Source: Natronococcus sp. A-GB1 (GTDB lineage Archaea; Halobacteriota; Halobacteria; Halobacteriales; Natrialbaceae). From it: DNA of 64,000 nt. The notes beneath the pieces are model-generated. The model did not search any database. It worked only from the letters and a program-made list of their open reading frames with translations, and was not told the DNA's origin. The stretch lies in NCBI RefSeq assembly GCF_029688845.1, contig NZ_JARUKW010000009.1:1-64000 (forward strand), given 5' to 3'. Positions 9,066 through 29,306 of the stretch are shown here, piece by piece. A program made the translations under genes and the position numbers. Positions within the stretch are counted from its first letter, which is position 1, and each line of letters opens with the position of its first letter.

Positions 9066-10322
9066 TTAGTCGTCGCTGGCAGAGGGTTTCGACTCTTGGA
9101 ACGCCGTGAGCGTCATCTGCGCTGGTACACTCGTCTCACGGTGAGTCGTGGCGGTGTCACAACCGCTCCCATCCCGTGACGAGTCATCGCGTTCCGCCTT
9201 GTCAAGCGGGACGCTCTCTCCCCACGGGTCAATCCGTCGTGCGATATTCGCCGAAGCGTTGATGTCTGCCTGAAACGTCGAAACGTGGCACTCGTCGTGA
9301 GGACACCGGAACTCGGCTTGGGAGTCCCGCCGACCGATGCGGTGGCACGAGTGGCACGTCTGCGAGGTGTACGCCGGATTCACGTACTCGACAGGGATGC
9401 CTGCTTCCGTCGCCTTGTCCTCGATACGTCCTTGGAGTCGGGCGAACGCCCACGAGTGAAGCCGACGGTTCATGTACTTCCCGTAGTCGAGACGCTTACG
9501 GATGTACGTCAAGTCTTCCATCACCAACATCGGATTCTCGTACTGCTTGGCGTACTCGACAGCCTGTCGAGACGCTTTCTCCACGATGTCGGTGAGGGCA
9601 TTCTGGTAGTGCGAAAAGCGGTCTTCAATCCGCCACTCGGATGCGTCACGCTCTTGGAGTCGCTTCAGGGCCGTGTGCATCTCCTTGCGAAGATGCTTCG
9701 CTCTGCTTCCACTACACACGAACGGGTCAGTCAGAGAACCGTCCTTGAGGGCACAGCCCGTGATGAGGGCGGTTTCTCCGATGTCTAAGCCGATGTGCGT
9801 AGCGTCACCGTCCGTTGCTGGTTCTTCGACCGGGTACTCGACGGTGACGTGAAGTATCCAGTTCTTCTGATGCTTCTGAAGGCGTATCTCTCCGGCCTTC
9901 GCGTCCTCAGATACGAGGTCGTGCCAGAGGTCTTCCTGTTCGGGGTTGATTCGGAGCGGTATCCAGAAGTTCGTCCCCCGACCGGGACGCGGAACCCACC
10001 ACGTAAACTCGTAGTCGCGTTCTTCGGAGTGGTCGAACTTGGCAGCCTGATTCGTGAGTCGTATCGGGTGTTCGTCGTCCAACTCCTTGGCGTTGTACGT
10101 CTTGCGGAGTTTCGGGACGTAGTTGCAGAGTGCTGCCTTCGCTTGATACGGTAGGTCGTAAGGCGTCACGATGTCGCTCACCGCCGACATGGTACTCGTC
10201 CCGGCGTCGAACGCCTCTTGCAGACCGTCACGGTAGGTTTCGAGTAGGTCGTTGAGTTTCGACTGCTTGTGGGCTGTCGGTGGGGCGAACGTCGCTTGAA
10301 GCGTCTTAGTTATCGTTGTCAC
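9066..10322 (-). CDS. tnpB: TnpB RNA-guided endonuclease (IS605 OrfB), apparently intact
   Basis: 418 residues. The RuvC-like triad is present: Asp in THIGLDIGETAL, Glu in MLVMEDLTYIR, and Asp in FQADINASANIA. The zinc ribbon CHSC...CPHDEC lies between the last two, preceded by NPAYTSQT. TnpB is a programmable nuclease guided by omega-RNA that maintains the element at its site. It starts with GTG at 10322, inside the preceding small gene. Codon use is less G/C-rich in third position than the neighbours, as expected for a mobile gene. Confidence 0.92.
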   Translation of the reverse strand: MTTITKTLQATFAPPTAHKQSKLNDLLETYRDGLQEAFDAGTSTMSAVSDIVTPYDLPYQAKAALCNYVPKLRKTYNAKELDDEHPIRLTNQAAKFDHSEERDYEFTWWVPRPGRGTNFWIPLRINPEQEDLWHDLVSEDAKAGEIRLQKHQKNWILHVTVEYPVEEPATDGDATHIGLDIGETALITGCALKDGSLTDPFVCSGSRAKHLRKEMHTALKRLQERDASEWRIEDRFSHYQNALTDIVEKASRQAVEYAKQYENPMLVMEDLTYIRKRLDYGKYMNRRLHSWAFARLQGRIEDKATEAGIPVEYVNPAYTSQTCHSCHRIGRRDSQAEFRCPHDECHVSTFQADINASANIARRIDPWGESVPLDKAERDDSSRDGSGCDTATTHRETSVPAQMTLTAFQESKPSASDD

Positions 10323-13434: not shown

Positions 13435-13998
13435 TCACTCGATTTCGAGCCGAGTCACGAGCGGAATCTCGTTCGTGACGATATCCATCAGCGGCGAGGT
13501 CGCCTCGACGCGCTCGCGCAGCTCCTCGAGATGCTCCTCCGACGCGTCGGCCTCGATGTGGGTCGTACAGGTGATCGACTCGTAGCCGGGTCGGACGTCC
13601 TCGTCGAGGCCGAGGAACCCCCGCAGGTCCACGTCACCGTTCATCTCGAACCGGAGGTCATCGAGTTCGATCCCCATGGCTGCGGCGTTTGCCGCGTAGC
13701 CGACGGTCAGACACGACCCGAGCGCGCCGAGCAGCAACTCGACGGCGTTGGGGCCCGTCCGCTCGCCCAGGATCTCCTCCGGCTCGTCGCCCTGAAGGGT
13801 AAACTCCCGTGTATGGACGGTTTCTCCCGCCTGATCGAACTCGTCGATGATCGTCGTCGCCTTCAGCGCGTCCTCCCACTTGGTTTCGGCTCGGAAGGTG
13901 AACGCCCCGACGGCAGCATCGTCGTCGATCGCCTCCATCGCTCCCTCGAGGGCGGAAACGTCGACACCGTTGACCGTGGTTTCTTCTCTGGTCGCCAT
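13435..13998 (-). CDS. OsmC-family hydroperoxide-reductase-like protein
   Basis: 187 residues. Typical OsmC order: a beta-rich N-terminus, GPNAVELLLGALGSCLTVGYAANAAA carrying the peroxidatic Cys, then SITCTTHIEADAS carrying the second Cys, and a C-terminal PLMDIV segment. Two conserved cysteines imply thiol-dependent peroxidase activity on organic hydroperoxides, in the cytoplasm. ATG 13998 is preferred; 13 upstream residues would be unlike the family. A palindrome in its upstream region (14044-14060) may control it. A second OsmC domain is fused to E2 at 25.2 kb. Confidence 0.9.
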   Translation of the reverse strand: MATREETTVNGVDVSALEGAMEAIDDDAAVGAFTFRAETKWEDALKATTIIDEFDQAGETVHTREFTLQGDEPEEILGERTGPNAVELLLGALGSCLTVGYAANAAAMGIELDDLRFEMNGDVDLRGFLGLDEDVRPGYESITCTTHIEADASEEHLEELRERVEATSPLMDIVTNEIPLVTRLEIE

Positions 13999-14043
13999 TG
14001 TTGACTCACCGACCTTCCCTCCGACGGCCGCGATCATAACCTA

Positions 14044-22849: not shown

Positions 22850-23662
22850 ATGGTCGAAGAATCCACACTCGAAGGAGCAGTATCGATCGTAACGGGTGGC
22901 GGCGGCGATATCGGTACCGGCATCGCGGCCGAACTCGCGGCCGCCGGAAGCGACGTCGTGATCGCGGACGTCGACGTTCTCGAGACGGAGTACAACCAGC
23001 AGGCGTCCACGGACGTTGGGGGGATAGAACGCACCCGGGAGGTCGTGGATCGCGTCGAGAACGAGGGCCAGCGCGCACACGTCGTCGAGTGCGACGTGAC
23101 CGACGCCGAGCAGGTCGAGGCGATGGTCGAGGAGGTCGTCGACGAGTTCGGCCGCATCGACGTCGTGGCGAACAACGCCGGCGTCATCACCGTTGCCCCG
23201 GTCGAGGAGATGGCCGAGGCGGAGTGGGAGTCGATCGTCGACGTCAACGCGAAGGGCGTGTTCCTCGTCGCCCGGGCCGCGATCCCGCACCTTCGGGACT
23301 CACACGGAACGATCGTCAACACCGCCTCGATCGCCGGCGAGATCGGGGCGGGCGGACTCGCCCACTACTGTGCGTCGAAACACGCCGTCCTCGGGTTCAC
23401 GAAGTCGCTGGCGCTGGAACTCGCCCCCGAGGTCACGGTCAACGCCGTCTGTCCGGGCATCGTCGAGACGCCGATGTGGGAGGACGTGCTGACCCCGTCG
23501 CTCGGCGAATCCTATGGGGAGACGATCGAACGGGCGATCCCGATGGGTCGGGACCAAGATCTCGAGGACATGGGACGGGCCGTCGTCTTCCTCGCGCAGA
23601 ATCGCAACATCACCGGCGAGTCGGTCGTCGTCGACGGCGGGATCCTCCAGAACGTTATTTGA
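22850..23662 (+). CDS. short-chain dehydrogenase/reductase (SDR)
   Basis: 270 residues, classical SDR. Cofactor motif TGGGGDIGTG (15-24), NNAG 108-111, catalytic S160, Y173 and K177 (HYCASKHAV), then the C-terminal VVDGG. An Asp after beta-2 (IADVD) favours NAD(H). The ETEYNQQASTDVGGIE insertion between beta-2 and alpha-3 is longer than usual. It precedes the E2 gene by 118 bp in the same direction. In an acetoin-type cluster a 2,3-butanediol/acetoin dehydrogenase would fit, but that is inference. Confidence 0.9.
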   Translation: MVEESTLEGAVSIVTGGGGDIGTGIAAELAAAGSDVVIADVDVLETEYNQQASTDVGGIERTREVVDRVENEGQRAHVVECDVTDAEQVEAMVEEVVDEFGRIDVVANNAGVITVAPVEEMAEAEWESIVDVNAKGVFLVARAAIPHLRDSHGTIVNTASIAGEIGAGGLAHYCASKHAVLGFTKSLALELAPEVTVNAVCPGIVETPMWEDVLTPSLGESYGETIERAIPMGRDQDLEDMGRAVVFLAQNRNITGESVVVDGGILQNVI

Positions 23663-23780: not shown

Positions 23781-25604
23781 ATGGGGTACGTTGTCAAGAT
23801 GCCGAAGCTCGGACTGGAGATGGAGCGCGGAGAGCTCCTGGGGTGGGAGATAACCGAGGGCGAGACGGTAGAGGAGGGCGAACTCGTCGCCGAGGTCGAG
23901 TCCGAGAAGAGTATCGGAGAGATCCAGGCCCGAGAACACGGCGTCCTCCGGCGGACGTACCTCGAGCCCGGCGAGACGGTCCCGCCCGGGACGCCGATCG
24001 GGATCGTCGCTCCCGCCGACGACGAGATCGACGACCTCGAGGCCCAGGTCGAGGCGGAGCTCGAGGACGTCGGCGGCGAGGCCGTCGAGGCGACCACGGA
24101 CGCGAGCGCGGATACGGACGCGAGCGCCCAAACCGACGGCGCCGCGTCGGTGGCCGCGGCGGGGTCGGGGTCGACCGCCGACGCGGGCAAGGTCTCACCG
24201 CGAGCACGCAAACGCGCCGAGGAGCTCGGCGTGGAGCTCGCGACCGTTGAGGGAACGGGGTATCAGGGCGCGATCACCGAGGACGACGTTGAGCGTGCGT
24301 CCGAGACTGACGAGGGCGCGACGGCGGAGGTCCAGGCCTCTCCGCGGGCCCGCAAGCGCGCCGAGGAGCTGGGCGTCGACCTCGCGACCGTCGAGGGGAC
24401 GGGGTATCAGGGGTCGGTCACCGAGGAGGACGTCGAGGCGGCTGTCGAGTCGGTCGACGACACCGGACGAACGCTCCGCGAGGAGCGTCCCTTTGACGGG
24501 ATGCGTCGAACGATCGCCTCGCGGCTCGGCGAGAGCTACCGCGAGGCCGTCCACGTTACGGCCCACCGCGAGGCCGACGCCGAGGCACTGTTCGCCGCTG
24601 TCGACGCCGCGGACGACGCACTCGAGACGGACGTCTCCGTCCAGGACGTCCTCTTGCTCGCGGTCTCGGCAGCTCTCGAGGACCACCCCGCGTTCAACGC
24701 GACCTTCGAGGACGACACCCACCGCCTCTGGACCGACCACAACCTCGGGATCGCCGTCGACGTCGAGCAGGGGCTTATCGCGCCGGTGCTCCGGAACGTC
24801 GAGGAGAAGTCGCTCGAGGCGGTTGCACGCGAGCGCCGCGAGCTCGTCGGGGCCGCCCTCGAGGGCGAGTACACGATGGACGACCTGCAGGGAGGAACGT
24901 TCACAATGACGAACCTCGGCGTGCTCGGCGTCGAGTCGTTCGATCCGATCATCAATCCACCACAGGTCGCGATCCTCGGGATCGACGCCGTCGCCGAGCG
25001 ACCGACGCGAGGTCCCGACGACGAGGTCGAGTGGCGCCGTCACCTCCCGTTCGATCTCTCCTTCGACCACCGGGTCGTCGACGGGGCCGACGCCGCCAGG
25101 TTCCTCGAGACGCTGATCGAGCGCGTCGAGGAACCGTGGTCGCTACTTCCCGAGGAAGTCGACGCCGAGGCCGGCGTTCGAGCCGACACGGCCGAAACGG
25201 AGATGCCCGAACGAACCGTCAGTGCCTCGAACGCCAAGGGGATGGCCGGTACGATCGAGGCGGGCTCGTTCGAGTGGGGCTACGACGAGCCCGAAGCGGC
25301 CGGCGGCACCGAGACGGGACCGACCCCGGTCGACGTCTTCCTCGGCGGGCTGGCCGCCTGTCTCTCGCTCTCGATCCGATTCCAGGCCGAAAAGCGCGAC
25401 GCCGCCGTCGGCGAGATCGACGTCACGACCGACGCCGAACCCGAACACGGCGCCGTCGAGCGGATCGCGGCGACGGTTCGCCTCGAGAGCGACGCCGACG
25501 ACGAGACCCTCGAGCGGATCGTCGACCTCGGCGAGCGGGGCTGTCACGTCTCGCAGCTGCTCCGGGAGGACCTCCCGCTCGAGCTGTCCTGGGAGCGGAT
25601 GTGA
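23781..25604 (+). CDS. 2-oxoacid dehydrogenase E2 with two binding domains and a C-terminal OsmC domain
   Basis: 607 residues. Order: lipoyl domain (1-78, lipoyl Lys K43 in SEKS), acidic Ala-rich linker, E1/E3-binding domain 1 (138-172), a near-identical second binding domain (186-220), acyltransferase domain (235-457, with active-site FDHRVVDG, H430 and D434), then an OsmC-like domain (471-607) with both family cysteines, C527 (GGLAACLS) and C588 (ERGCHVS). E2 transfers the acyl group from lipoamide to CoA. The OsmC part might reduce peroxides with the lipoyl dithiol. ATG 23781 is used; a GTG lies 18 nt earlier. No stop separates E2 and OsmC; an internal ATG at 25203 could also give OsmC alone. 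Confidence 0.93.
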   Translation: MGYVVKMPKLGLEMERGELLGWEITEGETVEEGELVAEVESEKSIGEIQAREHGVLRRTYLEPGETVPPGTPIGIVAPADDEIDDLEAQVEAELEDVGGEAVEATTDASADTDASAQTDGAASVAAAGSGSTADAGKVSPRARKRAEELGVELATVEGTGYQGAITEDDVERASETDEGATAEVQASPRARKRAEELGVDLATVEGTGYQGSVTEEDVEAAVESVDDTGRTLREERPFDGMRRTIASRLGESYREAVHVTAHREADAEALFAAVDAADDALETDVSVQDVLLLAVSAALEDHPAFNATFEDDTHRLWTDHNLGIAVDVEQGLIAPVLRNVEEKSLEAVARERRELVGAALEGEYTMDDLQGGTFTMTNLGVLGVESFDPIINPPQVAILGIDAVAERPTRGPDDEVEWRRHLPFDLSFDHRVVDGADAARFLETLIERVEEPWSLLPEEVDAEAGVRADTAETEMPERTVSASNAKGMAGTIEAGSFEWGYDEPEAAGGTETGPTPVDVFLGGLAACLSLSIRFQAEKRDAAVGEIDVTTDAEPEHGAVERIAATVRLESDADDETLERIVDLGERGCHVSQLLREDLPLELSWERM

Positions 25605-25613
25605 GAAACCCGC

Positions 25614-26123
25614 TTAGTCGGGGTACGTCGCGTCGGGCTCGGGGATCGAATCGACGTTCGCCGCGGTCTCGAAGATCGTCCCGTTGAGTTCGTCTGCGGT
25701 GTCGAAGTACCAGAACTCGACGCCCTCGTAGTTCCCGCTCTGGAGCACCGGCATCCCCGCGTCCTCAAACTCCTCGACGACGGCGTGAGGGTCATCGAAC
25801 GCGAAGCAGGCGACGTGGTGGAGTCCCTCGCCATGCTCCTCGAGGTGTTCCGTGTAGATGCTCGGTCCCTCGAGCGGTTCGATCAGCTCGATCATCGTGT
25901 CGCCGAGCTGTGTCAGTGCGAGCAGCATCGAGAACTCGCCGTCCTCGCCCCGGAAGGTCCGGTCGGTCATCGCGGGCGGCTCGAAGCGGTGGATCTCCCA
26001 GGGACCGATCCCAAGGAGCCCGCTGAAACGATCCATCCCGTCTTCGATATCCTCGACGACGAACGCGACCTGCGAGAGTTCGGGGAGCTCGATCTCGAGT
26101 TGTGGTATGTTCTCGTTGACCAT
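25614..26123 (-). CDS. VOC-family protein (glyoxalase fold)
   Basis: 169 residues, one VOC unit of two beta-alpha-beta modules: LSQVAFVVEDIEDGMDRFSGLLGIGPWEI, later GEGLHHVACFAFDD and GVEFWYFDTADELNGTIFE. The tail and the IGPWEI segment resemble methylmalonyl-CoA epimerase or 4-hydroxyphenylpyruvate dioxygenase-like halves. Glu and His at metal positions suggest an enzyme. It is convergent with the E2 gene (9 nt apart) and follows AcoX on the same strand, so it is probably part of the same cluster. Confidence 0.85.
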   Translation of the reverse strand: MVNENIPQLEIELPELSQVAFVVEDIEDGMDRFSGLLGIGPWEIHRFEPPAMTDRTFRGEDGEFSMLLALTQLGDTMIELIEPLEGPSIYTEHLEEHGEGLHHVACFAFDDPHAVVEEFEDAGMPVLQSGNYEGVEFWYFDTADELNGTIFETAANVDSIPEPDATYPD

Positions 26124-26179: not shown

Positions 26180-27211
26180 TCAGTCCTCCGGTGCCGGCGG
26201 TGCGTCGGTCGCCTCGAGCGCGAACGCGCCGGCGTTGGCTCCGATCGTGAGCGCGGCGTCGACATCGACCAGCCGCGGCCCGTCAGAGCGAACCCGAAAC
26301 TCGACGCTTGCGTCGGTGAGTTCGAGTTCACGCTCGCCGTCGGCGCCGACGACGCCGTCCGGAACCTCGAACGTGACCGGCTCGTCGGAATCGACCCGTT
26401 CGCACGACTCGATTCCGACGGTCGCCACGACGCCCGGTGCGAGCACCGCACGGGCGGTTCTCGGGGAGTTCTCGGGATCGGTGAGTCGCACGGCGACGCC
26501 GCCAGGTTCGTCGGGTGCGACAGGCTCGAGCGCACCGGCAATCGCTGGAAGTCCGATGTCGCCCGGCCGCGCTCTCGAGACCACGCCCCCGCGAAGGTCG
26601 TCGGGATCGAGTAGCGCCCTGGAACCGATGAACGACCGGGAGGAGACCTCGGCCGCTGCCAGCGCGGTAAGTCGTTTCTCGCCGTTCGGGGTCTCGGCTC
26701 GAGCCTCGATCCGTCCATGTCGATCGACAACGTCAGCAGCCAGGACGGCGCCCGTCGCGACCAGCGCCGCGGCGACGCCCGCAACGGTACCGTCGACGGC
26801 TGAGGGGACGACATTGTTCGTTCCCGTCGAGACCGCGACGACCGGCACCGAGCCGATCTCGCTCGCGACGTCGCGGGTCGTTCCGTCCCCGCCGAGGACG
26901 ACGACGGCACCGACTCCCGCCTCGCGAAACCGCGCGGCTGCCCGGCGCGTGTCCGCGGCCGTGTTCTCGACCGGCATCTCGAGGGCTTCGGCCTCGATCG
27001 CGTCGGGCGCCTCCTCAAGGATGTGGTCGGCGATCCCGGACCGGTCGGGCATCAGCCGGACGGATGGGCGGTCGGCGACCGCGGTCAGCCCCTCGAGGAC
27101 GCAGTCAGCGACCCGTCGCTTCGCGTAGTTGTCGACGACGCTGGCGCCGCCGGTGAGCCGCCGAATGTCGCGTCCGGCCGCGGGGTTGACGACCAGTCCG
27201 ACGCGGGCCAC
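26180..27211 (-). CDS. AcoX/ATP-NAD kinase family protein
   Basis: 343 residues. NAD-kinase-like N-terminal domain with NPAAG (9-13) and the GGDGTTRD motif at 107-114, VSTGTNN (the equivalent of the second binding loop), then a beta-rich C-terminal domain. Homologues called AcoX sit inside acetoin dehydrogenase operons, with unknown biochemical role. The start is GTG 27211, sharing one base with the E1-beta stop (TAGTG), so it is coupled. Confidence 0.88.
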   Translation of the reverse strand: MARVGLVVNPAAGRDIRRLTGGASVVDNYAKRRVADCVLEGLTAVADRPSVRLMPDRSGIADHILEEAPDAIEAEALEMPVENTAADTRRAAARFREAGVGAVVVLGGDGTTRDVASEIGSVPVVAVSTGTNNVVPSAVDGTVAGVAAALVATGAVLAADVVDRHGRIEARAETPNGEKRLTALAAAEVSSRSFIGSRALLDPDDLRGGVVSRARPGDIGLPAIAGALEPVAPDEPGGVAVRLTDPENSPRTARAVLAPGVVATVGIESCERVDSDEPVTFEVPDGVVGADGERELELTDASVEFRVRSDGPRLVDVDAALTIGANAGAFALEATDAPPAPED

Positions 27212-28221
27212 TACGTCACCCGCTCGATCGCCTCGCGGACATCATCGCCGTCGGGCAGGACCTCCTGCTCGAGGGGCGTGCTAAACGGCATGTGCGTGTC
27301 CGGTGTCCCGACCCGCTGGATCGGCGCGTCGAGGCTGAAGAACGCCTCCTCCTGGACGCGGGCGACGATCTCGGCGTGGGTTCCGTACGACAGCGGGCTC
27401 TCGTCGGCGACGATGAGCCGTCCCGTCTTCCGGACGCTCTCGACGATCGTCTCCGTGTCGAGGGGGTACAGCGAACGGGGGTCGATTACCTCGGCCTCGA
27501 CGCCGGCCTCGGCCAGGCTCTCGGCGGTCTGGAGCGACTCGCCGACCAGCCGCTGGGTGGCGACGACGGTGACGTCCTCGCCTTCGCGTTCGATGGCAGC
27601 CTCGCCAAGCGGGATGGTAAACTCGTCGTCGGTCGGCACCGCGCCCTCCTGCTCGTAGATCATCTTGTTCTCGAAGACGAAAACGGGGTCGTCGGAGCGG
27701 ATCGCGGCCTTGGTCAGCCCCTTCGCGCTCGCGGCGGTGCCGGGGGCGACGGCCATCAGTCCGGGGAAGTGGGCCATCCACGTATGAATCGTCCCCGAGT
27801 GCTGGCTGGCGGCGCCCATGCCGCCGCCCTCGGTGGTGCGGACGGTGACCGGCATCTCGGCCTTTCCGCCGAACATGTAGCGCATCTTCGCCATCTGGTT
27901 CATGATCTGCTCCATCGAGACCCCCGCGAAGTCGGAGAACATGAGCTCGACGACTGGGCGGGTGCCCGTCGCCGCCGCACCCGTCGCCGCACCCATAAAG
28001 CCGGCCTCGCTGATCGGCGTATCCCGCACGCGCTCGCCGCCGAACTCGTCGTACAGTCCGCTCGTGACTTCGAGGACGCCCCCGAAGAGGCCGACGTCCT
28101 CGCCCATGATGTAGACGTCCTCGTCGCGCTCGAGCTCCTCACGCAGCGCCTGACGGACGGCCTCCCGGACGGTCATCGTCTCCGTCTCGGTCTCGAGTTC
28201 GCGTTCGGCCTGGGCGGTCAT
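27211..28221 (-). CDS. 2-oxoacid dehydrogenase E1 component, beta subunit
   Basis: 336 residues. VREAVRQALREELERDEDVYIMGEDVGLFGG, FADFAG-type region (FSDFAGVSMEQIMNQMAKMRYMFGG), QHSGTIHTWMAHFPGL, and the C-terminal transketolase domain. The QHS loop contains the His that contacts the decarboxylation intermediate in this family. It pairs with E1-alpha (ATGA overlap at 28218-28221) and supplies half of the thiamine diphosphate site. Sequence resembles acetoin dehydrogenase beta subunits, in line with AcoX next door. Confidence 0.93.
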   Translation of the reverse strand: MTAQAERELETETETMTVREAVRQALREELERDEDVYIMGEDVGLFGGVLEVTSGLYDEFGGERVRDTPISEAGFMGAATGAAATGTRPVVELMFSDFAGVSMEQIMNQMAKMRYMFGGKAEMPVTVRTTEGGGMGAASQHSGTIHTWMAHFPGLMAVAPGTAASAKGLTKAAIRSDDPVFVFENKMIYEQEGAVPTDDEFTIPLGEAAIEREGEDVTVVATQRLVGESLQTAESLAEAGVEAEVIDPRSLYPLDTETIVESVRKTGRLIVADESPLSYGTHAEIVARVQEEAFFSLDAPIQRVGTPDTHMPFSTPLEQEVLPDGDDVREAIERVT

Positions 28222-29306
28222 CGTCGTTCACCTCCCTCGGATCGCGAACGATCCGATGTGGATCGCGAATCTTCGATTCGCTCACCTCCATCAGTCCGCG
28301 CGGCAGTCGCAAAGCGCTCGATCTCGGGGGGTGTCTCGGCGAACATGTCCTCGTAGGCTTCGTGGGGCGCCGGCGGCTCCGCGCTCTGGGCGTACTCGAC
28401 CGCCGCCTCGATCTCGGCTTCGATCTCGTGTTCGAGCTCGTCGAACTCCTCGGCGGTGAGCTCGCCCCGGTCGATCAGCCGTTCCTTGAACGAGTCGATC
28501 GGATCCCGCGCCTTCCAGCGCTCGATCTCGTCCTCGTCGCGGTAGGGCTCCTCGTCACCCTCGTAGTGGCCCCGGTAGCGGTAGGTCTCGGCCTCGATCA
28601 GCGACGGCCCGTCGCCAGCCCTGGCGCGGGCGCGGGCCTCGCCGACGGCCTCCGCGACCGCCGTGACGTCCATCCCGTCGACGGTCAGTCCCGGAATGTC
28701 GTAGGCCTGAGCCGTGTCGCTCAGGTTATCGACGTTGTGTTGCTCCTCGACGGGAGTCCCTTCGCCGTAGTGGTTGTTCTCAATGACGAAGATAGCCGGC
28801 AGATCCCACGTGGCCGCGAGGTTCATCGCCTCGTGGACCTGGCCTTGGGCGACCGCGCCGTCGCCGAGGAAGCCGACCGCGACCTGGTCGCGGTCCTGGT
28901 AGTCGATCGACAGCGCCGCGCCGGTTGCGAGTGGCGGGCCCGCGCCGACGATCCCGTTGGCGCCGAGCATCCCCGCGTCGACGTCGGCGATGTGCATCGA
29001 GCCACCCTTGCCGTTGCAGTAGCCCTCGGCTTTCCCGTACAGTTCGGCCATCATGTACTTCGGATCCAGTCCCTTCGCGATACAGTGGCCGTGACCGCGG
29101 TGGGTGCTCGCGATGTAATCCTCGTCCTCGAGCGACGCGCAGGTGCCGACGCCGACCGCCTCCTCGCCGATGTAGAGGTGGACGAAGCCAGGGATCTCGC
29201 CGTCTGCGAACCGGTCCCCGGCCTCACTATCGAACGCCCGGATCGTCAGCATTCGGCGCAACGCCTCTCGCCGCCCCTCTTCGGTCTCTATGTCAAGTCC
29301 TCCCAT
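28218..29306 (-). CDS. 2-oxoacid dehydrogenase E1 component, alpha subunit
   Basis: 362 residues. TPP motif GDGAVAQGQVHEAMNLAATW with GDG at 148-150 and the closing NN at 177-178, preceded by GKGGSMHIADVDAGMLGANGIVGAG, the acetoin-type E1-alpha region. The phosphorylation-loop equivalent (about 250-290) is Arg/Glu-rich (YRYRGHYEGDEEPYRDEDE). A Ser/Arg-rich tail (about 330-362) is extra to the family core. E1 decarboxylates the 2-oxo acid (or cleaves acetoin) and acylates the E2 lipoyl group. First gene of the operon; a minus-strand TATA box lies 26-33 nt upstream. Confidence 0.93.
   Translation of the reverse strand: MGGLDIETEEGRREALRRMLTIRAFDSEAGDRFADGEIPGFVHLYIGEEAVGVGTCASLEDEDYIASTHRGHGHCIAKGLDPKYMMAELYGKAEGYCNGKGGSMHIADVDAGMLGANGIVGAGPPLATGAALSIDYQDRDQVAVGFLGDGAVAQGQVHEAMNLAATWDLPAIFVIENNHYGEGTPVEEQHNVDNLSDTAQAYDIPGLTVDGMDVTAVAEAVGEARARARAGDGPSLIEAETYRYRGHYEGDEEPYRDEDEIERWKARDPIDSFKERLIDRGELTAEEFDELEHEIEAEIEAAVEYAQSAEPPAPHEAYEDMFAETPPEIERFATAARTDGGERIEDSRSTSDRSRSEGGERR

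What the first reader, a model, noticed from the sequence alone, without database searches (positions are those of the whole stretch)
23781..25604. E2 acyltransferase fused to OsmC, with duplicated binding domain
One open frame encodes lipoyl domain, two near-identical E1/E3-binding domains (138-172 and 186-220), acyltransferase domain with His430/Asp434, and an OsmC domain keeping both redox cysteines (527, 588). OsmC proteins reduce hydroperoxides, and in bacteria OsmC/Ohr is known to take electrons from lipoylated proteins. A fusion would put the peroxidase on its own electron donor, so the complex might defend itself or couple carbon oxidation to peroxide reduction. Duplicated binding domains may bind E1 and E3 at the same time. 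That functional reading is inference; the domain order is seen.
Basis: partly seen in the sequence, partly recalled or inferred. Interest (0 to 1): 0.78.

Follow-up and report, generated by a model that had tools for sequence, protein, structure and literature searches.

The report
Metabolic enzyme fused to OsmC domain
Salt-loving archaea carry a single protein that joins the acyl-carrying core of an acetoin-type dehydrogenase to an OsmC redox domain; the fusion is real and widespread, but relatives that shed the enzyme core and the lipoyl anchor while keeping the OsmC half show that OsmC does not depend on the swinging arm it is attached to.

Summary
Window 23781-25604 (+) is one 607-aa frame: lipoyl domain (Lys43), two peripheral-subunit-binding domains, acyltransferase (His430/Asp434) and a complete OsmC domain (Cys527, Cys588). 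It is a conserved haloarchaeal fusion found in at least five families. It sits beside E1-alpha, E1-beta and an AcoX-like gene, so it is the E2 of an acetoin-dehydrogenase-type complex. First, the OsmC domain has both cysteines in 61 of 61 relatives but lacks the Arg/Glu pair of Ohr/OsmC peroxidases, which places it with the uncharacterised YhfA-like group. Second, ten relatives have lost the whole E2 core and the lipoyl lysine yet keep an OsmC under purifying selection. This happened at least six separate times, in genomes without AcoX and, where searched, without a close E1-alpha. One genus carries this OsmC as a free gene. The OsmC therefore has a function independent of lipoyl in cis. Best reading: a YhfA-type dithiol redox enzyme tethered to E2, able to use lipoyl groups but not dependent on its own. 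No description of the fusion was found in the open papers searched. New variant of a known kind.

The parts
23781..25604 (+). E2-OsmC fusion gene, 607 aa
   Evidence: Open frame; Pfam domains; 39 full-length relatives
23793..24002 (+). Lipoyl domain, residues 5-74; lipoyl lysine Lys43 at 23907-23909
   Evidence: Pfam Biotin_lipoyl; E40, E42, K43 invariant in 39 fused relatives
24192..24296 (+). First E3/E1-binding domain, residues 138-172
   Evidence: Pfam E3_binding; repeat comparison
24336..24440 (+). Second E3/E1-binding domain, residues 186-220, 88% identical to the first
   Evidence: Pfam E3_binding; repeat comparison
24480..25148 (+). Acyltransferase catalytic domain, residues 234-456; His430 at 25068-25070, Asp434 at 25080-25082
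   Evidence: Pfam 2-oxoacid_dh; H430 invariant, D434 nearly invariant
25173..25208 (+). Flexible linker between acyltransferase and OsmC, residues 465-476
   Evidence: pLDDT below 50 in the full-length model
25200..25601 (+). OsmC domain, residues 474-607 (Pfam core 509-602); Cys527 at 25359-25361, Cys588 at 25542-25544
   Evidence: Pfam OsmC; model pLDDT 96; fold match to Ta0195 and YhfA; Cys invariant in 61/61
22850..23662 (+). Short-chain dehydrogenase upstream; seen at this place only in the window and L030
   Evidence: Pfam, neighbourhoods
25614..26123 (-). Glyoxalase-superfamily protein, convergent neighbour in most fused clusters
   Evidence: Pfam Glyoxalase_4, neighbourhoods
26180..27211 (-). 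AcoX-like NAD-kinase-fold protein
   Evidence: Pfam NAD_kinase; bacterial homologue heads an acetoin dehydrogenase operon
27211..28221 (-). E1-beta subunit
   Evidence: Pfam Transket_pyr + Transketolase_C
28218..29306 (-). E1-alpha subunit
   Evidence: Pfam E1_dh, NCBIfam

Best explanation
It is the E2 of an acetoin-dehydrogenase-type complex (E1-alpha/E1-beta/AcoX alongside) to whose C-terminus a YhfA-like OsmC domain was fused early in haloarchaeal history. The lipoyl arm, binding domains and acyltransferase do ordinary E2 work. The OsmC domain is a dithiol redox enzyme working through Cys527 (attacking) and Cys588 (resolving). Tethering places its disulfide among the lipoyl arms of the complex, which can plausibly reduce it, but its function is general to the cell: lineages that abandon the complex keep the OsmC and let the lipoyl lysine go. 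Shown: architecture, conservation, invariant cysteines, independent losses of the E2 core with OsmC retained. Inferred: that the cysteines act in redox, and that lipoyl groups reduce them. The substrate (organic hydroperoxide or another electrophile) is not known.
For: Fusion intact in 39 full-length relatives with K43, H430, C527 and C588 invariant. OsmC and E2 distances strongly correlated over 47 fused proteins (Mantel r 0.90, 0 of 2000 permutations as high), so the two halves have travelled together. OsmC Cys pair 61/61. Ten relatives = lysine-less lipoyl-like domain + OsmC without E2 core, needing at least six separate changes on the OsmC tree; a single origin is rejected (AU p = 4e-46 overall, 0.014 within family f1). 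OsmC dN/dS in pairs involving these 0.18-0.41, lipoyl part 0.24-0.93. AcoX missing from all ten genomes; no close E1-alpha in the nine that were sampled or in G010. Genus g39 keeps OsmC as a free gene next to E1-alpha. AcoX homologue in Paraburkholderia lies with E1-alpha, E1-beta and an acetoin dehydrogenase E2. Lipoylated proteins reduce Ohr and OsmC (PMC8945050).
Against: No activity has been measured for any YhfA-like OsmC protein in the papers read. The Ohr Arg and Glu are absent, so the cysteines could do something other than peroxide chemistry. In the fused proteins the lipoyl lysine is invariant, but E2 function alone explains that. The OsmC is not kept by every genome that lacks the complex, so the independent function is not essential.
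Confidence: 0.58

Rival explanations
1. One reading: the fusion is a self-contained lipoyl-dependent hydroperoxide reductase. E3/NADH or E1/substrate reduces Lys43-lipoyl, which reduces the Cys527-Cys588 disulfide in the same particle.
For: Ohr/OsmC are reduced by lipoylated E2s (PMC8945050); an Ohr-dihydrolipoamide complex exists in the PDB (6ebg, listed); Lys43 and both Cys invariant in fused proteins; flexible linker.
Against: Arg and Glu of the Ohr active site absent. OsmC retained without any lipoyl lysine in at least six lineages and as a free gene in g39.
Confidence: 0.25
2. The OsmC dimer is a structural module: E2 cores are trimers and OsmC is an obligate dimer, so a C-terminal OsmC would link trimers across two-fold axes and help build the particle.
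For: Position at the E2 C-terminus, where two-fold contacts form in known E2 cores (established knowledge, not tested here); OsmC proteins are homodimers (PMC5962072).
Against: OsmC is kept when the E2 core is gone, both cysteines are invariant, and unfused E2 orthologues exist without it (Halococcus L033, L088, L089).
Confidence: 0.07
3. The OsmC domain has a non-peroxidase role (thiol-based detoxification of carbonyls such as diacetyl, thioester or ligand binding) tied to the substrates of this catabolic cluster.
For: YhfA-like active site without Arg/Glu; co-location with a glyoxalase-family gene and, in the window, a short-chain dehydrogenase.
Against: Retention after loss of E1, E2 core and AcoX argues against a role specific to this pathway. 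No direct evidence for any such substrate.
Confidence: 0.1

Closest known systems
Dihydrolipoamide acyltransferase E2 of 2-oxoacid/acetoin dehydrogenase complexes
   Same: Lipoyl domain with lysine, E3-binding domain, catalytic domain with HxxxDG
   Different: Duplicated binding domain and a C-terminal OsmC domain
Ohr/OsmC lipoyl-dependent peroxidases
   Same: Same fold, same two-cysteine arrangement; reduced by lipoylated E2 proteins in bacteria
   Different: Free proteins with catalytic Arg and Glu, both missing here
YhfA-like OsmC proteins (E. coli YhfA, 1ml8; third Ohr/OsmC subfamily)
   Same: Two cysteines, no Arg and Glu; the YhfA structure 1ml8 gives the lowest rmsd among listed matches (2.2)
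   Different: Here fused to E2; YhfA function is unknown
Mycobacterial AhpC-AhpD-DlaT-Lpd peroxidase system (from established knowledge)
   Same: Works-like comparison: an antioxidant enzyme served by an E2 lipoyl group
   Different: Separate proteins of other folds; no OsmC and no fusion
Bacterial acoXABC acetoin dehydrogenase operon
   Same: AcoX-like protein with E1-alpha and E1-beta
   Different: The AcoC family model matches only the N-terminal part of this protein; this E2 has a standard acyltransferase plus OsmC
Alpha/beta-hydrolase-OsmC fusions (annotated in Ensifer)
   Same: OsmC domain joined to a metabolic enzyme
   Different: Different partner domain

Membership tests
2-oxoacid dehydrogenase E2 | Lipoyl domain with target lysine | tested here: met
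   Pfam; E40/E42/K43 invariant
2-oxoacid dehydrogenase E2 | Peripheral-subunit-binding domain | tested here: met
   Two E3_binding matches
2-oxoacid dehydrogenase E2 | Catalytic HxxxDG motif | tested here: met
   H430, D434, G435
Ohr/OsmC peroxidase (sensu stricto) | Two conserved redox cysteines | tested here: met
   61/61
Ohr/OsmC peroxidase (sensu stricto) | Catalytic Glu in the PE motif before the peroxidatic Cys | tested here: not met
   Aligned residue is Val517 (PVD) against PEQ/PEE in 3eer, 2bjo, 1qwi; Pro516 invariant, next acid is Asp/Glu518 in all 61
Ohr/OsmC peroxidase (sensu stricto) | Catalytic Arg in the loop after the first strand | tested here: not met
   Aligned with Ala485; no Arg conserved there in 61 domains
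Ohr/OsmC peroxidase (sensu stricto) | Lipoyl-dependent hydroperoxide reduction | not testable with these tools
   Needs an enzyme assay
YhfA-like OsmC subfamily | Two cysteines without the Arg/Glu pair | tested here: met
   definition from PMC8945050
YhfA-like OsmC subfamily | Closer to YhfA than to Ohr/OsmC by sequence | tested here: inconclusive
   Profile matches 1ml8 only weakly (7e-5); fold match good; NCBIfam hit OsmC_like_Se is below cut-off
Acetoin dehydrogenase complex | E1-alpha and E1-beta with AcoX-type gene | tested here: met
Acetoin dehydrogenase complex | Own E3 in the cluster | tested here: not met
   No E3 at the locus; the one strong Pyr_redox_dim match in the genome lies by the other E2 on contig C12
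Acetoin dehydrogenase complex | Acetoin as substrate | not testable with these tools
   Needs growth or enzyme assay

The most novel reading that the evidence does not exclude
The fused OsmC taps dihydrolipoyl groups directly and passes electrons to hydroperoxides, so the complex can turn over without E3 and NAD, coupling acetoin oxidation to peroxide removal in one particle.
Probability: 0.15. Interest if true: 0.85.

Novelty: new variant of a known kind. Interest (0 to 1): 0.6.

Why it matters
It provides a natural series: fused with lipoyl lysine, fused without lysine (L085), OsmC with a dead lipoyl-like domain, and free OsmC. That series makes the question of what YhfA-like OsmC proteins do, and whether they need lipoyl donors, directly testable in culturable, non-pathogenic archaea. 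It also warns against reading function from a fusion alone: relatives show the domains come apart repeatedly.

Tried and rejected
Frameshift or artefact: rejected, the fusion recurs in independent genomes. OsmC as a pure assembly module: rejected as main reading because it outlives the E2 core. Single ancient loss giving all lysine-less proteins: rejected by tree and AU test. Lysine-less proteins as simple pseudogenes: not favoured, frames are open and OsmC dN/dS is low. Fusion outside haloarchaea: among the rows listed, no bacterial plasmid had a match covering both E2 and OsmC (only 25 rows each were listed); bacterial chromosomes could not be searched well. Published description: none in the open papers searched; subscription literature was not searched. 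Concerted evolution of the two binding domains: within-protein identity 0.84 against 0.77-0.81 between species, suggestive only. A paper search on tandem binding domains failed on a term rule.

Full report
Observation. AlphaFold gives a complete OsmC fold (pLDDT 96) and a flexible linker at 465-476 in the full-length model.

Surroundings. The gene faces, convergently, a glyoxalase-family gene, an AcoX-like gene, E1-beta and E1-alpha. An AcoX homologue in Paraburkholderia heads E1-alpha, E1-beta and an annotated acetoin dehydrogenase E2, followed by a lipoate ligase. The cluster is therefore acetoin-dehydrogenase-like; the substrate is inferred. There is no E3 at the locus. The one strong match to the E3 dimerisation domain in the genome is next to another E2 on contig C12.

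Distribution. Named relatives with the fusion are Natronococcus, Natronorubrum, Haloterrigena, Halobiforma, Natronolimnohabitans, Natribaculum and Halomarina; the sample of the order adds members of families f4, f5, f12 and f14. In 39 aligned full-length fusions K43, H430, C527 and C588 never change. E2 and OsmC distances correlate at r = 0.90. Orthologues without OsmC exist (Halococcus, Halalkalicoccus, L088, L089). By my count, 83 of 392 sampled genomes have the close E1-alpha; 39 of these have this OsmC family, 35 fused and 4 (genus g39) as a separate gene.

The informative exceptions. In ten relatives (L061-L064, L071, L126-L130) the gene encodes a lipoyl-like domain joined to OsmC with no binding domains and no acyltransferase. 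None has the lipoyl lysine (ESEKS has become ESGAS, EFETA, ASERR, ASESG and others). Pfam still recognises most of the lipoyl folds, and all the OsmC domains, in those that were scanned. None of these genomes has AcoX, and no close E1-alpha was found in them. Six lie in the same slot between the 2-oxoacid:ferredoxin oxidoreductase genes and chorismate synthase; others are elsewhere. On the OsmC tree they need at least six separate changes, and a single origin is rejected. Their OsmC parts are under purifying selection by pairwise dN/dS (0.18-0.41), more so than their lipoyl parts. L085 is an intermediate: a truncated lysine-less lipoyl part, no binding domain, acyltransferase and OsmC intact. 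Genus g39 has OsmC as a free gene beside E1-alpha.

What this says about mechanism. The OsmC cysteines are invariant in all 61 domains whatever the architecture, so they matter; the lipoyl lysine is invariant only where the rest of the E2 is kept. The OsmC function is thus separable from lipoyl in cis. Reduction by lipoyl groups of other complexes in trans is not excluded. Against solved structures, the Glu of the Ohr/OsmC PE motif is Val517 here, and no Arg is conserved in the Arg loop. In Ohr these two residues give the peroxidatic cysteine its reactivity (PMC5962072), and their absence with both cysteines present is the description of YhfA-like proteins, whose activity is unknown (PMC8945050). 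I therefore favour a YhfA-type dithiol redox enzyme tethered to, and possibly served by, the E2 lipoyl groups but not dependent on them (0.58).

Novelty. I found no description of an E2-OsmC fusion in the open literature searched. Both halves are known families, so this is a new variant of a known kind. Gene tallies come from samples of genomes and contigs, some incomplete, and pairwise dN/dS on GC-rich genes is approximate.

Noticed in passing
L057-L060 (genus g39), L034, L091: E2 proteins in intact E1/AcoX clusters have a divergent catalytic domain that has lost the catalytic His (YDAR, YDTR, YDPR in place of FDHR), while E1 and AcoX are well conserved; in L060 the E2 frame is also broken.
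   Followed up: partly
window 13435-14037 (-): A second OsmC-family gene 10 kb away keeps the first Cys (GSCLT) but has no Cys at the usual second place.
   Followed up: no
L065, L066, L068, L069, L070: A second, more distant set of E2-OsmC fusions (41-45% identity), several next to other E1 genes: a paralogous group with the same architecture.
   Followed up: partly
L130 6504-7316 (-): The lysine-less lipoyl-OsmC gene lies antisense between what read by eye as A-type ATP synthase subunit genes.
   Followed up: no
L072 7590-8035: A decayed second OsmC copy with stops beside a glyoxalase fragment, in a genome that also has the intact fusion.
   Followed up: no
L029, L032, L033: Number of E3-binding domains varies (1, 1, 3); L029 looks like a recombinant of the two repeats.
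   Followed up: partly
window 9066-10322 (-): Frame that reads by eye as an IS200/IS605-type TnpB/OrfB protein.
   Followed up: no
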